Shown here: positions 10,160 through 19,050 of the stretch, piece by piece
Layout of the letters: the number at the start of each line of letters is the position of its first letter
Position numbering within the stretch: the stretch's first letter is position 1
Assembly (NCBI GenBank): GCA_947453695.1
Contig: CANGHW010000015.1
Location: 1 to 64,000, forward strand
Reading direction: 5' to 3'
Source: Opitutia bacterium
GTDB lineage: Bacteria > Verrucomicrobiota > Verrucomicrobiia > Opitutales > Opitutaceae
DNA length: 64,000 bases
The notes under the pieces: model-generated
Told to the model about the DNA's origin: nothing
Seen by the model: the letters and a program-made list of their open reading frames with translations, nothing else
Database searches by the model: none
Translations under genes and position numbers: made by a program

Positions 10160-13100
10160 TTAGTTGCCGCCGACGCGCGAGGTGTCGCGGGCGTTTTCTT
10201 CGAAGGCGGCCATGACGGCCTCGTCGCCGGTGAGGCCCTGCGCCTCGGCTTTCTCGATACAGGCGAGCATGCGCTTGTAGTCCTTCGGGAGGACTTTCAC
10301 GAACTTCGGCACGTAGGTGTCGAAGTTGGCGAGCACCTGCTGGCCGCGCGCGCTCTTGGTGTAATCGACGTGGCGCTGGATGATCGCGCGGAGCTCGGCG
10401 ATCTCGGTGGGCTTCTCAACTTTTTCTAGACCGACCATCGAGACGTTGGCCTGCTTGGCGAAGTCGCCATTCACATCAAGCACGTAGGCGACGCCACCGG
10501 ACATGCCGGCGGCGAAGTTGCGGCCCGTGGGTCCGAGGACGACGACGCGGCCACCGGTCATATATTCGCAACCGTGGTCGCCGACACCTTCAACGACGGC
10601 GGTCACGCCGGAGTTGCGGACGCCGAAGCGCTCGCCGGCGCGGCCATTGACGTAGATTTCACCAGCCGTGGCACCATACATGGCGACGTTGCCGATGATG
10701 ATGTTGTCCTCTGCCTTGAAGCCGGCGTTGGCCGGTGGGTGGACGATGAGTTTGCCGCCGGAGAGGCCCTTGCCGAAGTAGTCGTTGGCGTCGCCCTCGA
10801 TGGAGAGCGTCATGCCGCGCGTGACGAACGCGCCGAAGCTCTGGCCGGCGGAGCCCTTGAATTTGAAGCGGATGGTGTCCTCGGGGAGGCCCTTGGCGCC
10901 GTGCTTCTTGGTGACTTCGTAGCTGGTGATCGTGCCGGTGACGCGGTTGACGTTCTTGATCGGCAGCTCGGCGATGACCTTCTCGCCATTCTCGATCGCG
11001 GGTTGCGCGAGGCCGAGGAGGGTCGTGAGGTCGAGGGACTTGTCGAGGCCGTGGTCCTGCTTGATAGAGCAGAACCGGCCGACTTCGGGTCCGACGTCCG
11101 GCGAGTAAAGGATCTTGGAGAAGTCGAGGCCCTTGGCTTTCCAGTGGGTGACGGCGCGCTGGGGCTCGAGGCGATCGGTGCGGCCGACCATCTCTTCGAT
11201 GGTGCGGAAGCCGAGTTGCGCCATGAGCTCGCGGACTTCAGTCGCGATATACGTCATGAAATTCACGACGTGCTCGGGCTTACCGGCGTATTTCGCGCGG
11301 AGACGCGGGTCCTGCGTCGCAACGCCCGCGGGGCAGGTGTTGAGATGGCAGACGCGCATCATGATGCAGCCGGTGGCAACGAGTGGAGCGGTCGCGAAAC
11401 CGAACTCCTCGGCGCCGAGCAGCGCGGCCATGATGACGTCTCGGCCCGTCTTGAGCTGGCCGTCCGTCTCGACGGCGATGCGCGAGCGGAGGTTGTTCAA
11501 GACGAGGGTCTGGTGGGTCTCTGCGAGACCTAGTTCCCACGGGAGACCGGCGTGCGTGATGGAGGTCTGCGGCGAGGCGCCGGTGCCACCGTCGTAGCCG
11601 GAGATGAGGACGACATCGGCGTGGGCCTTGGCGACGCCGGCAGCGATGGTGCCGACGCCGACTTCAGAGACGAGCTTCACACTTACGCGCGCATGGCGGT
11701 TGGCGTTCTTCAGGTCGTGGATGAGCTCCGCGAGATCTTCGATGGAGTAGATATCGTGGTGCGGCGGGGGCGAGATTAGGCCGACGCCAGCGGTGGTGCC
11801 GCGGGTCTTGGCGACCCACGGATACACCTTCGTGCCGGGCAACTGGCCGCCTTCGCCGGGCTTCGCGCCCTGGGCCATCTTTATCTGGATTTCCTTGGCG
11901 TTGGTGAGGTAGTCGCTCGTGACGCCGAAGCGGCCGGAGGCGACCTGCTTGATGGCGGAGTTCTTTGAGTCGCCGTTGGGCATGGGCACGAAGCGCGCGG
12001 GATCTTCGCCGCCTTCGCCCGTGTTGGATTTGCCGCCGATGCGGTTCATCGCGATGGCGAGCGTCTCGTGCGCTTCGCTGGAGATGGAGCCGTAGGACAT
12101 GGCGCCCGTCTTGAAGCGCTTCATGATCGCCTGGATCGACTCAACTTCCTCGATCGGCACCGGCGTGGAGCCGGCCTTGAAATCGAGGAGCGAGCGCAGG
12201 GTGCAGTGCTTGGCGCCCTGATCGTTGACGATCTTCGAGTAGTCTTTGAATGCGGTGTAGCTCGAGGTGCGCACGGCCTTTTGCAGGCGGTGGATGGATT
12301 CGGGCGTGAAGAGGTGGGCTTCGCCGTCATTGCGCCACTGGTATTGGCCGCCGGAGGGCAGCACGGCGGCGTTGGCGGTGCGGTCCGGATAGGCGGCGTG
12401 GTGGCGGGCGAGGACTTCCTGGGCGACGACATCGAGGCCGATGCCGCCGACGCGCGAGGGCGTCCAGGTGAAGTAGTGGTCGACGACGTCCTGGCGGAGG
12501 CCGAGGGCTTCGAAGACCTGCGCACCGCGGTAGGACTGGATCGCGGAGATGCCCATTTTGGACATGACCTTGACGACGCCTTTGGAGGCGGCCTTCACGA
12601 GGTTGAGGCAGGCTTTCTTGTGGTCGATGCCAGTGAGGAGACCTTCCTGGATGAGGCCATCGATCGTCTCGAAGGCCACGTAAGGATTGATCGCCGAGGC
12701 GCCGTAGCCGATGAGGAGCGAGAAGTGATGCACTTCTCGCGCGTCACCGGTCTCGATCACGAGAGAGACGCGCGTGCGGAGGCCTTCGCGGATGAGATAG
12801 TGGTGCAGGCCGGCGACGGCGAGGAGAGCCGGGATCGGCGCGAATTCCTTGGTCACACCGCGGTCGGAGAGGATGAGGACGTTGGCCTCGTCTTCCTCGA
12901 TGTGGCGGCGGGCCATCATGCAGAGTTCTTCCATCGACTTCGCGAGGCCCTTCTCACCTCGGGCGGTGCGGAAGAGGATCGGAAGCACGGCGGTCTTGAG
13001 GCCGGGAAGATCGGTGCGGCGGATTTTCGCGAAATCCTCATTGGTGAGGATCGGGTATTTCAACTCCACACGGCGGCACGCGGTCGGCTGCGGGTTGAGA

Positions 13101-14809
13101 AGATTGCCCTCGGAGCCGAGGCGGGTCTCGGAGGAGGTGATGATTTCCTCACGGATACAGTCGATCGGCGGGTTGGTGACCTGCGCGAAGAGCTGCTTGA
13201 AATAATCGTAGAGGAGACGCGGCTTGTTGGAGAGCACCGCGAGGGCGGCGTCGTTGCCCATGGAACCGGTGGCTTCCACGCCGTCCTTGGCCATCGGGAG
13301 TAGGATGATGCGCTCGTCTTCGTTGGTGTAACCGAAGGCGATCTGACGCTGGAGCAGAGTCGCGTGGTCGGGCTGCTCGACCTTGGGCGCCTCGGGGAGG
13401 TCGCTGAGGTGGACGAGGTGCTCGTTGAGCCACTGACGGTAGGGACGCGCCGTGCAGATTTCTTTTTTGATCTCTTCGTCGGAGATGATGCGACCCTGGG
13501 CGGTGTCCACGAGGAACATCTTGCCGGGCTGCACACGGCCCTTCTCGGCGATCTCTTCATTCGGGATCGGGAGCACGCCGGCCTCGGATGCGACGACAAC
13601 AAAGCCGTCCTTGGTCACGTAATAACGCGAGGGGCGCAGGCCGTTGCGGTCGAGGACGCCACCGATCTGGATGCCGTCGGTGAATGCGATGGCGGCCGGG
13701 CCGTCCCACGGTTCCATCAGACAGGAGTGATATTGGTAGAACGCGCGGCGGTCGTCGTCCATGGTCTCATGGTTGGACCACGGCTCGGGGATCATCATCA
13801 TCACGGCGTGTGCCAGCGGCCGGCCGGCGAGGACGAGGAGTTCGAGGGTGTTGTCGAACATCGACGAGTCCGAGCCGTTCGGATTGATGATCGGGAGGAT
13901 CTTCTTGATGTCGTCGCCGAAGGCCGGGCTGTCGAAGAGTGCCTGGCGGGCGTGCATCCAGTTGATGTTGCCGCGGAGCGTGTTGATTTCGCCGTTGTGC
14001 GCGATGTAGCGGTAAGGATGCGCGCGCTCCCAGCTGGGGAACGTGTTTGTCGAGAAACGCGAGTGGACGATGGCGAGAGCCGACTCCATCGCCGGGTGCG
14101 CGAGGTCGGGGAAATATTGCCCGACTTGCTCGGTGAGGAGCATGCCCTTGTAGACGAGCGTCTTCATCGAGAGGCTCGCGACATACCAGGCTTCGGCGCC
14201 GGCGATGGTGGAGGTGCGGATGTCGTTATAGGCGCGCTTGCGAATCACGTAGAGCTTCCGCTCGAACTCAAGATCGCTGGTGATGTCCGGGCCGCGGCCG
14301 ATGAAGACCTGACGCATGAACGGTTCGCAGGAGATGGCGGTGTTGCCGAGGGTCTTGTTTTCGGTCGGGACCGTGCGCCAGCCGAGGAAGACTTGGCCTT
14401 CGGATTGCACGACCTGTTCGAAGACCTCTTCGACCTTGCGGCGGACGGTGCGGTTGCGCGGGAGATAGATGAGGCCGGCGCCATACTGGCCGGGCTCGGG
14501 TAGCGTGATGCGCGCAGTCTTGGAGACCTCGGCGAAAAACTTGTGCGGCATCTGGATGAGGATGCCGGCGCCGTCACCGGTGTTGGGTTCGCTACCGGCG
14601 GCGCCGCGGTGATCGAGGTTCGTCAGGACTTGGAGTGCGTCGGAGACGATTTTGTGCGATTTCCGGCCCTTCATATCGACCACAAAGCCGACGCCGCAGG
14701 CGTCGTGCTCAAATGCGGGATCATAGAGGCCCTGCTTGCCGGGCGCACGCGTCGCGGGAGCGGCGGTATCGTCGTGGGAGGCGGGGGTGGGGATGGTATC
14801 GTTATTCAC
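10160..14809 (-). CDS. gltB: Glutamate synthase large subunit
   Basis: 1549 aa; [67 protein letters not shown]. Confidence 0.97.
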
Positions 14810-14946: not shown

Positions 14947-15282
14947 TTAAAAGAAGCGGATCGTTTTAGTGGCCATTTTGGCGTGCTCCTCATCCGAGCA
15001 GCCCGCGTTGGTGGGGGCGGCGGCGGGAGCGTCGGTCGGTTTCACAAGGGCGTTGCTGAGCAGGTAATTCTCGACTTCCTCGCCCGAGATGTCGGCGAGC
15101 ATGACGCCGTCGATTTCGACACAGGGGGAAAGGGGCTGGCCCGACTTCTGGACCATCTCCGCGTAGTTGGCGCGGTTGTTGATGATATCGATGTCCTCGA
15201 AGGCGAGGTTGTGCTTGCGCATGATCGCACGGACACCGTTGGACCACCCACAGGAGGGTTTGAGATAGGCTTTGATCTTCAT
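14947..15282 (-). CDS. Glutaredoxin-like protein
   Basis: MKIKAYLKPSCGWSNGVRAIMRKHNLAFEDIDIINNRANYAEMVQKSGQPLSPCVEIDG. Confidence 0.75.
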   Translation of the reverse strand: MKIKAYLKPSCGWSNGVRAIMRKHNLAFEDIDIINNRANYAEMVQKSGQPLSPCVEIDGVMLADISGEEVENYLLSNALVKPTDAPAAAPTNAGCSDEEHAKMATKTIRFF

Positions 15283-15386
15283 GCGGTGAACGTGTGCGTG
15301 GACAGAAGCGGGGCAAGGTAAAGGGCGCGTTTTCCGGCAATCAAGCACGCGTTTTGGAAATTTTCGGGGAAGCTTGTCATAGCAAA

Positions 15387-15545: not shown

Positions 15546-16616
15546 CTACCCTTTCGGCGCGAAGATGGCCTTGAAGTCGGGATCGTTCGCCAGCGACTCG
15601 AAGTCCGGGTTAAGCAGCAAATCGGTGTGCAACTTGAAGCCGGCCACTTCGGCGGCGAACTGCGCCTTCGCCTCGCGGAGGAGACGCAGGACATCGTCGC
15701 GTTGGCCGAGCAGCGCCGAGATTTGTGCCCGAAGAACAAAGTGTTGGCCGAAGCGGTATTTCGGATCGACCGCGCGCAGCCACGCCAGCGCCGCGCGGGC
15801 CGCTTCGGTGTCGTCGAGCCGCGCCGCGCAGGAACCGATGAAGCCGCGATAGATAAGGTTGTCGGGTTTTTCCCGCATCAGCACCTCGCACTCCGCGCGC
15901 GCCTCTGCATAACGGCCGGCCAGATAGCGCACCCGGGCCCGGTCGTAGCGCTGCGCCTCGCTCGCCGCTTCCTGCGGCGGACGCGAGGTGAACCACGCCT
16001 CGGCCTGTTGCGCCAAGGCGGCAAACTCGGGCGTGCCGGCGCGACCGAGCCGGCGCACTTGCGCTAGCGCCACGACAAAGTGATACCCGGGATAGTGCTC
16101 CCGGCCCTCCGAACGCAGCCCGCTGGCTTCGTCGAGCAGCCGGCCGGCCGCGGCATAGTCGCCGTGGCGAAGGTGCGCCCAGACGCAGAATTGGAGCGCC
16201 TGTTGCTGATTAGGCCACAGTTCGCGGTAGCGCAGAGCGGCGGCGAGCATGGCGGCATCGTCGCCGAGCAAAAAATGAGCGATGGTCCGCCACGTCCAAA
16301 CGACAGGGTCTTTCTCGCGCGTAGTGCCCGGTGCAACTGCGGCCAACTCCGCGAGGATGGCCTGCGGCTGAAAGGTCACCGCCAACCCCAAGAGCGCTTG
16401 ATTGCTCCACGCGTCTTCGTTCGGCGCCCACGCGTGCAAACGCTGGGCGGCGGCGAGCATGGCGCGCACGTCGCTCTGAGTCACCGCTCGCACCCAAGCC
16501 ACGCGTTCGTGATCATAGGGAGTCAGGCGCCCGGACAGGAGCGCATCGATTTCCTGCAGCATCGTCTCCGCTCCGGCGTAGTCCAGTCGGGGGGGGGCCT
16601 GCCTTTCTCGTGGCAA
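15546..16616 (-). CDS. TPR-rich C-terminal portion of the frame-interrupted TIR protein
   Basis: Helical repeats (WAPNEDAWSNQALLGLAVTFQPQAILAELAAV...) continue to a normal stop; the nominal start is a TTG just upstream of the C9 tract. Confidence 0.6.
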   Translation of the reverse strand: MPRERQAPPRLDYAGAETMLQEIDALLSGRLTPYDHERVAWVRAVTQSDVRAMLAAAQRLHAWAPNEDAWSNQALLGLAVTFQPQAILAELAAVAPGTTREKDPVVWTWRTIAHFLLGDDAAMLAAALRYRELWPNQQQALQFCVWAHLRHGDYAAAGRLLDEASGLRSEGREHYPGYHFVVALAQVRRLGRAGTPEFAALAQQAEAWFTSRPPQEAASEAQRYDRARVRYLAGRYAEARAECEVLMREKPDNLIYRGFIGSCAARLDDTEAARAALAWLRAVDPKYRFGQHFVLRAQISALLGQRDDVLRLLREAKAQFAAEVAGFKLHTDLLLNPDFESLANDPDFKAIFAPKG

Positions 16617-17892
16617 TCATGACGAGCGCGGCGGCGGCGCCTTTGGGATCGAGTTCGTAGCTGCGGCGGTGTTGGGCGTCTCTTTGCTCCTGGCTCAACC
16701 CGGTATCATAGAATTTCACCATACGCTGCGAATCCCAGCGCCGGGGCACGGCGAAGTTGTTCATCGCCGCGACATCCCGCCCGCCCTGCCGATCCGCGCC
16801 CAATTCCGCGGCGATGCCGAGGAGCCGCTCGGCCATGTCTTCCACGGCGGCGGACGCGTCGGCCACCGGTCCCTCGATGGGCGCGAGATCGGCCCAAGTC
16901 TTGCCGCGCACGAGGTCGAACACTCGGCCGCGCAGGACCAACTTGTCGCCCTGCCGATGGTAGGTGCCCGCGATCAAGGCATCGGCATCATTGTTCCGCG
17001 CGAAGCGGCTGAGGTCTGCGGCGGTGAGCTCAACGGAAATTTTTTCGGTCGCGGGCAACATGACTGCCTCGCGGACCCACTCCAGCTCGGGCAAATGACG
17101 TCGGATGTGGTCCGCGATCAACTCTCCGGTGAGATCGAGCGCGGGCTCGCCGCTGAGATTCTCGAACCGCGCGACCAGCACGCGGCTCTCTTTTTTCACT
17201 GGCTCGGCCTGTGCGAGCACCGGGCGGATTGCCGCCGGTCGGATTACCCCCGAGCCGCGGGCGACGTAGGTGCGATAACCGAAATAGCCGCTGGCACCGA
17301 GGACGGCGACCAGCACAGCGATCCATGCCGCCGCAGGGACGTGTCGGCCCACCTTGGCTTGAGTGGGAGGCGCGGCGCCCTTGCCGCGTTCTGCGGGACG
17401 GGGGCGTCCCGGCTGCAGCTCCGCGTGCGCCACCGCTCCCACCCGATGCGACCACAACTTGAGAAACCGGTCGCATAACTCGGGGGTGACTTCGCCGCTG
17501 GGCAGACGCGTCCACTGCACTTTGCGAAAACGATCCGGCACGAGCGCATCGGGCTCGCGGGTTCCGTCGATAATGATCGGCAAAATGAACGCGACGCCCG
17601 AGGCGATGCTCATCGCGCGCTCGGCGGCGAGTTCCCACTCGAGGCGGAAGTAACCCTCGTGCCGCGCCTGCGTGTTAGCCGAGATGAGCGGAATGAAGAG
17701 CACGCACTCTTTGATCTGGCGGCGGATTTTCGCGTCCCACTCGTCGCCGTGCTCCAACCCGCCGTCGACGTCGAACCACACTTCGATCCCGCTCGCTCGC
17801 AGCGTATCGCAAATGCGCCGCGCGGCTTCCGCGTCTTGCGATGCGTAGCTGAGAAACACGGCGCGGGCGGAGAGGGACGACTCGGCGGACAT
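16513..17892 (-). CDS. TIR domain - TM - TolB/FlgO-like domain, N-terminal portion of the frame-interrupted gene
   Basis: ARAVFLSYASQDAEAARRICDTLRASGIEVWFDVDGGLEHGDEWDAKIRRQIKECVLFIPLIS; TM AAWIAVLVAVLGASGYFGYRTYVA; RVLVARFENLSGEPALDLTGELIADHIRRHL; frame degenerates after the C9 tract. Confidence 0.8.
   Translation of the reverse strand: MSAESSLSARAVFLSYASQDAEAARRICDTLRASGIEVWFDVDGGLEHGDEWDAKIRRQIKECVLFIPLISANTQARHEGYFRLEWELAAERAMSIASGVAFILPIIIDGTREPDALVPDRFRKVQWTRLPSGEVTPELCDRFLKLWSHRVGAVAHAELQPGRPRPAERGKGAAPPTQAKVGRHVPAAAWIAVLVAVLGASGYFGYRTYVARGSGVIRPAAIRPVLAQAEPVKKESRVLVARFENLSGEPALDLTGELIADHIRRHLPELEWVREAVMLPATEKISVELTAADLSRFARNNDADALIAGTYHRQGDKLVLRGRVFDLVRGKTWADLAPIEGPVADASAAVEDMAERLLGIAAELGADRQGGRDVAAMNNFAVPRRWDSQRMVKFYDTGLSQEQRDAQHRRSYELDPKGAAAALVMIATRKAGPPPTGLRRSGDDAAGNRCAPVRAPDSL
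16589..16597. repeat. G9 (coding-strand C9) homopolymer splitting the TIR-TPR gene
   Basis: gtccagtc-ggggggggg-cctgcc; removal of one C on the minus strand joins the two ORFs. Confidence 0.9.
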
Positions 17893-18075: not shown

Positions 18076-19050
18076 ATGAAAGTCCTCGTGACCGGCGCCG
18101 CCGGGTTCATCGGTTACCACGTCGCGCGCCGTCTGGCGGAGAGCAAACGCTGCGAGGTGCTGGGCGTGGACGTGATCGGCGACTACTACGACCCCGCGCT
18201 TAAAGGTGCGCGGCTCGAACAGCTCGCGCAGCTGGAGAAGTTTCGATTCGTGCAGGGAGATTTTGCCGAAGCGGAAAAATTTTCGGCGCTCGTCGCACAG
18301 TTTAAGCCGCACTACGTCGTCCACCTCGGCGCGCAGCCCGGCGTGCGCTACAGCATGGAAAACCCCGGCGCCTACCAGCACAGCAACCTCGATGGATTCA
18401 CCAGCGTGCTCGAAGCCTGCCGGCGCACGCCGCCGAAGCACCTCGTGTTTGCCTCGAGCAGCAGCGTTTACGGATCGGGGGCGAAGGCGCCTTATCGCGA
18501 GGACGATAACACGGATCAGCCTGTGTCGTTCTACGGTGCGACGAAGAAGGCCAATGAGGTCATGGCGCACAGCTACGCGCACGTGCACGGCCTCAATGTC
18601 ACTGGGCTGCGCTTCTTCACGGTTTATGGCCCCTGGGGCCGGCCAGACATGGCGCCGACGATTTTTGCGCGCGCAATCTGCGAGGGAAAACCACTGAAGC
18701 TCTTCAACCACGGGAAAAACCTCCGCGATTTCACGTTCGTCGACGACATCGTGGACGGTGTCGTGAAAGTTCTCCTCTACCCGCCCGCCGAGCGCCCCAC
18801 CCCGTCGATGCGGATTTTCAATCTCGGCCACCATCGCCCCGTCGAGACGCTGCTTTTCGTGCGCATGCTTGAAGAACTCCTGCGCAAAAAAGCCGAGATC
18901 GAGCTCCTACCGCCGCAGCCAGGCGATATGTTCGAGACCTGTGCCGACCTCACGCGTGTGCAGGCTGCCATCGGCTTTGCGCCCAAGGTTCCGCTCGAAG
19001 AGGGATTGAAACGTTTCGTCGAGTGGTTCCGCGGTTACTATAATCTGTAG
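18076..19050 (+). CDS. NAD-dependent epimerase/dehydratase (UDP-glucuronate 4-epimerase-like)
   Basis: MKVLVTGAAGFIGYHVARRLAE; HLGAQPGVRYSMENPGAY; FASSSSVYG; TGLRFFTVYGPWGRPDMA. Confidence 0.88.
   Translation: MKVLVTGAAGFIGYHVARRLAESKRCEVLGVDVIGDYYDPALKGARLEQLAQLEKFRFVQGDFAEAEKFSALVAQFKPHYVVHLGAQPGVRYSMENPGAYQHSNLDGFTSVLEACRRTPPKHLVFASSSSVYGSGAKAPYREDDNTDQPVSFYGATKKANEVMAHSYAHVHGLNVTGLRFFTVYGPWGRPDMAPTIFARAICEGKPLKLFNHGKNLRDFTFVDDIVDGVVKVLLYPPAERPTPSMRIFNLGHHRPVETLLFVRMLEELLRKKAEIELLPPQPGDMFETCADLTRVQAAIGFAPKVPLEEGLKRFVEWFRGYYNL

What the first reader, a model, noticed from the sequence alone, without database searches (positions are those of the whole stretch)
15546..17892. TIR-TM-TolB-like-TPR gene split by a C9 homopolymer: phase-variable switch, decaying gene or sequencing error
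Seen in sequence: on the minus strand a TIR domain, TM segment and TolB/FlgO-like domain run in frame until ...MIATRKAGPPPTGL, then drift to an early stop. A TPR-rich region continues in another frame through the same stretch. The switch point is exactly a C9 run (G9 on plus, 16589-16597). With C8 the junction reads ...MIATRKAGPPRLDYAGAETMLQEIDAL..., giving one 781-aa protein. Established: bacterial TIR domains can be NADases or signalling/defence effectors, and long mononucleotide runs are classic slippage sites. Inference: C8/C9 slippage may switch between a full-length membrane TIR-TPR receptor and a TIR form lacking its TPR sensor.
Basis: partly seen in the sequence, partly recalled or inferred. 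Interest (0 to 1): 0.72.

Follow-up and report, generated by a model that had tools for sequence, protein, structure and literature searches.

The report
Frameshifted membrane TIR gene, probably decaying
A gene for a membrane-anchored TIR-domain protein (a domain often used in bacterial immunity) is broken in two by a frameshift at a run of nine Cs; its counterparts in two sister species are clearly dead genes, so this is most likely a recently broken gene rather than a designed on/off switch.

Summary
On the minus strand a TIR-TM-TolB/FlgO-like frame and a TPR frame meet at a C9 run (16589-16597), the codon-phase bias flips there, and reading across gives 781 aa, the length and layout of intact relatives. 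The phase-switch interpretation is not supported. The gene sits between glutaredoxin/gltB and a nucleotide-sugar epimerase. At that site two sister species carry only wrecked copies (stop, frameshifts, large deletions) and four have no gene. The wrecked copy that still covers the tract position has no C run there. Of twelve C/G>=9 runs in this draft genome, this is the only one seen to break a gene; no intact relative examined has an internal tract of 9 or more. The window's TIR domain has kept its conserved residues (including E85) while the sister copy lost many, so the lesion is recent, or a consensus error, or a minority allele. Best reading: recent slippage knocked out, or truncated to TIR-TM-TolB, a dispensable member of a large Opitutaceae TIR receptor family. 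Assembly error, true phase variation and leaky +1 frameshifting at CCC-C cannot be excluded without reads.

The parts
17500..17859 (-). TIR domain (residues 12-131); invariant E85 in YFRLEWELA at 17638-17640
   Evidence: Pfam TIR_2 1.8e-18; fold matches SARM1, AbTir and SPARTA TIRs; E85 invariant in 26 family sequences
17263..17334 (-). predicted transmembrane helix (residues 187-210), basic residues just before it (N-terminus inside, inferred)
   Evidence: AlphaFold helix 187-210; hydrophobic sequence
16867..17187 (-). TolB-N/FlgO-like domain (residues 236-342)
   Evidence: sub-threshold Pfam FlgO; Foldseek matches to FlgT, PelC, TolB, LpoB
16589..16597 (-). C9 run where the reading frame changes
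16513..16588 (-). out-of-frame tail of the TIR-half ORF to its stop
   Evidence: residues 432-459 modelled with pLDDT below 50
15546..16588 (-). TPR-rich remainder, in the other frame
   Evidence: weak TPR_19/TPR_9 matches; 72% identity of its end to the remnant in sister species G005
14947..15381 (-). downstream neighbour: glutaredoxin-like gene (then gltB 10160-14809), conserved synteny
18076..19050 (+). upstream neighbour: NAD-dependent epimerase, 85-88% identical in six congeners, conserved synteny

Best explanation
A formerly functional membrane TIR receptor gene (cytoplasmic TIR NADase-like domain, one TM helix, outside TolB-like and TPR domains) has recently been broken by replication slippage in a C run. 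The gene was present at the grx-epimerase site in the ancestor of three related species and is being lost in all of them. In the window's lineage the loss is at its first step: a frameshift that ends the protein shortly after the TolB-like domain and drops the TPR part. Shown: the frameshift in the assembly, the synteny, the wrecked orthologs, and constraint on the window's TIR until recently. Inferred: that the lesion is real in the organism, that slippage made it, that it is not a useful reversible switch, the membrane topology, and the NADase activity.
For: Synteny gltB-grx-[TIR gene]-epimerase in G000 and G007, and next to the epimerase in G005, whose contig begins inside the remnant region; in G003, G004, G006, G008 grx and epimerase are adjacent with no TIR match. 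The G007 copy has an in-frame TGA just after the TIR, several frame changes and lacks most of the TPR part; the G005 copy lacks the TIR and is shifted. Against six intact relatives the window's TIR has 4-6 private changes, the G007 TIR 12-21, and of 103 columns invariant in the relatives the window departs at 9 and G007 at 17, including W to stop. Pairwise dN/dS is 0.23-0.60 for gene pieces versus 0.08-0.11 for the epimerase, as expected when at least one copy has lost constraint. Other members in the genus are broken too (L146, L147, L148, L151).
Against: The window copy has only this one lesion, which is also what a consensus error or a reversible slippage site would look like. The rest of its frame is open and TIR residues are conserved. 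In a wider sample most family members are intact (91 of 99 that do not run off a contig), so decay is not the rule for the family.
Confidence: 0.57

Rival explanations
1. Assembly or consensus error, or a strain mixture in the metagenome: the true or majority tract has a length that keeps the frame, and the gene is intact.
For: The genome is a 356-contig draft, most likely metagenome-assembled. It contains poly-C runs of 13-26 at three contig ends. A single frameshift in an otherwise constrained gene, not shared by relatives, is the usual signature of a sequencing error or a fresh indel (singleton class in PMC3711429).
Against: Several runs of 8 G/C lie inside long open frames of the same assembly without breaking them (L131, L134, L135, L136, L138, L139). 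The window run is internal and 9 long, not at a contig end. Orthologs are decaying anyway, so a real lesion is expected here.
Confidence: 0.25
2. Phase variation: slipped-strand mispairing at the C run switches reversibly between a full-length receptor and a TIR-TM-TolB form without TPR.
For: A run of 9 C inside a coding frame; both halves otherwise open; TIR residues conserved.
Against: No tract at the position in the sister copy that covers it. Of twelve C/G>=9 runs in the genome three are at contig ends, most others lie between genes or near open-frame starts and one lies in an apparently open frame, so such tracts do not mark contingency loci. Family loci hold almost no G/C>=8 runs; the long ones found inside TIR genes sit at a contig end and at a scaffold gap. 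Orthologs are dead genes.
Confidence: 0.1
3. Leaky or programmed +1 frameshifting: ribosomes slip on CCC-C in the run and make some full-length protein from the C9 allele.
For: The frame reads GGC CCC CCC CCG; E. coli tRNA-Pro(UGG) is naturally prone to +1 and +2 slippage on CCC-CG (PMC4519876).
Against: The site is not found in any relative; there is no stop codon at the slip site as in prfB; a conserved stimulator could not be sought because no relative shares the site.
Confidence: 0.06

Closest known systems
TIR NADases with solved structures (AbTir, SPARTA TIR-APAZ, SARM1)
   Same: TIR fold and an invariant glutamate E85 in the YFRLEW motif
   Different: Fused to a TM helix and TolB-like/TPR domains, not to APAZ/Argonaute or SAM-ARM; activity untested
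Opitutaceae/Verrucomicrobia TIR-TM-(TolB or cyclase)-TPR proteins found here
   Same: The window gene is a member by TIR identity (up to about 80%) and layout
   Different: Its TolB-TPR half is close only to the remnants in two sister species; it carries the frameshift
Homopolymer phase-variable genes (slipped-strand mispairing contingency loci)
   Same: Long C run in a coding frame, out of frame in this assembly
   Different: Tract not conserved, not seen to vary, orthologs dead

Membership tests
Bacterial TIR domain protein | Significant TIR profile match and TIR fold | tested here: met
   TIR_2 67.6 bits over cut-off 28; TIR structures AbTir, SARM1, SPARTA among matches
Bacterial TIR domain protein | Catalytic glutamate present | tested here: inconclusive
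   E85 invariant in 26 aligned members; that it is the catalytic one is inferred, not assayed or superposed
Bacterial TIR domain protein | NADase activity | not testable with these tools
   needs an enzyme assay
Phase-variable gene by slipped-strand mispairing | Repeat tract whose unit change moves the frame | tested here: met
   C9 at the frame junction
Phase-variable gene by slipped-strand mispairing | Tract length varies between cells or strains of the species | not testable with these tools
   no reads; one genome per species held
Phase-variable gene by slipped-strand mispairing | Tract kept in orthologs or recurrent in the family | tested here: not met
   no tract in the G007 ortholog; no internal run of 9 or more in the family members examined apart from contig-end and gap artefacts
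Pseudogene | Frame-breaking lesion in a gene whose relatives are continuous | tested here: met
Pseudogene | Relaxed constraint on the window's own copy | tested here: not met
   the window's TIR has few private changes, so inactivation, if real, must be recent
Known defence system (PADLOC) | Full-length match to a system protein and its partner genes | tested here: not met
   only partial TIR-domain matches; neighbours are housekeeping genes

The most novel reading that the evidence does not exclude
The C run is a real contingency switch that toggles a membrane TIR receptor between a sensor-bearing form and a TIR-TM-TolB form lacking the TPR part, i.e. phase-variable TIR signalling in Opitutaceae.
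Probability: 0.08. Interest if true: 0.6.

Novelty: new member of a known kind. Interest (0 to 1): 0.2.

Why it matters
As it stands it is a gene-loss snapshot: one syntenic site shows absence, a freshly broken copy and heavily eroded copies of a TIR receptor among congeners, which fits the fast turnover expected of immunity-like genes. If the tract did switch, it would be a rare case of phase-variable TIR signalling.

Tried and rejected
A scan of genome contigs with the TPR half found no relative, so this half is close only to the two remnants in the genus. A codon-score scan for other frame shifts in the window was not reliable (it missed the target itself) and is not used. Long G/C runs beside TIR genes in L171 and L206 looked at first like family tracts but lie at a contig end and a scaffold gap. 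PADLOC and NCBIfam gave only partial TIR matches. No paper was found that joins TIR genes with homopolymer phase variation.

Full report
Observation. The run G9 on the plus strand (C9 on the coding minus strand) is at 16589-16597 and is the only run of nine in the window. Upstream of it the frame of ORF 16513-17892(-) carries the coding bias; downstream the bias passes to the frame of ORF 15546-16616(-). The tract alone is not surprising for the base composition (51 of 100 shuffles have at least one).

Anatomy. TIR domain (residues 12-131, Pfam 1.8e-18); helix 187-210 as a single TM segment; then a TolB-N/FlgO-like domain at 236-342. The AlphaFold model has pLDDT of about 90 in both folded domains. 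Foldseek matches are SARM1, AbTir and SPARTA TIRs for the TIR fold and FlgT, PelC, TolB and LpoB for the TolB-like fold (which part of the query each match covers was inferred from the fold, not printed). E85 in YFRLEW is invariant in 26 family members. Residues 432-459, after the frame change, are modelled with very low confidence. The TPR part has weak TPR profile matches. Topology with TIR inside and TolB-TPR outside is inferred from one TM helix and the basic residues before it.

Family. Relatives are numerous in Opitutaceae-type MAGs; the own genome holds several other TIR members. The TIR is coupled to different C-terminal parts: TolB-like plus TPR, long TPR, or a class III cyclase plus TPR. 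Intact TolB-type members are continuous proteins of similar length, so the window's fused frame is what a normal member looks like. In the named collection 125 TIR copies were examined: 91 open for 600 aa or more, 26 run off a contig, 8 short or with a stop.

The site. The epimerase next door is 85-88% identical in six congeners and marks the locus. In G006, G004, G003 and G008 glutaredoxin and epimerase are neighbours without a TIR gene. In G007 (L056) the gene lies at the same place but has a stop right after the TIR, several frame changes and a missing TPR middle. In G005 (L057) the TIR and more are gone and the rest is shifted. The G007 sequence aligned at the tract has no C run. Thus the tract is, as far as can be seen, private to the window's lineage.

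Age of the lesion. Compared with six intact TIR relatives the window's TIR has 4-6 private changes, G007's 12-21. dN/dS between window and remnants is 0.23-0.60, for the epimerase 0.08-0.11. So the window's copy stayed under selection until recently, or still is if the frameshift is not real.

Is the tract a switch? Twelve distinct C/G>=9 runs exist in the 6.38-Mb draft; three are at contig ends (13, 18 and 26 long), most others are between genes or near the edges of open frames, one lies in an apparently open frame, and only the window's is seen to break a gene. In family loci the G/C>=8 runs inside TIR genes are one C8 and artefacts at a contig end and at a scaffold gap. A contingency locus would be expected to keep its tract; this one does not. 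Variation itself could not be tested: no reads, one genome per species.

Error? Several G/C runs of 8 lie within long open frames of this assembly, so runs are generally resolved; a run of nine may still be miscalled or mixed. Leaky recoding: the frame reads CCC CCC CCG, and E. coli tRNA-Pro(UGG) slips on CCC-CG (PMC4519876); the site is not conserved, so a programmed use is unlikely.

Verdict. Real frameshift in the assembly; most likely the first step of loss of a TIR receptor gene that is being lost across the clade; error next; phase variation and recoding possible but unsupported.

Noticed in passing
G000 contigs C254:1-26, C117:15889-15906, C271:5277-5289 (L125, L119, L126); L171:4130-4160; L206:4471-4596: Runs of 13-31 G or C at contig ends or beside a scaffold gap, likely assembly-end artefacts; two lie just after a TIR domain, where contigs may break because the TIR sequence is repeated.
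   Followed up: partly
G029:C20:86000-119500 (L096, L097): Array of about 15 TIR genes or fragments in 33 kb with different C-terminal parts, many intact.
   Followed up: partly
L106:1793-4261 and L065:4070-6538: TIR fused to a class III adenylate/guanylate cyclase domain and TPRs, a combination that joins two nucleotide-signal enzymes in one protein.
   Followed up: no
whole genome G000: C/G runs of 9 or more (12 distinct in 6.38 Mb) are roughly ten times rarer than the window's shuffles predict (1.14 matches per 64 kb), suggesting selection against them.
   Followed up: partly
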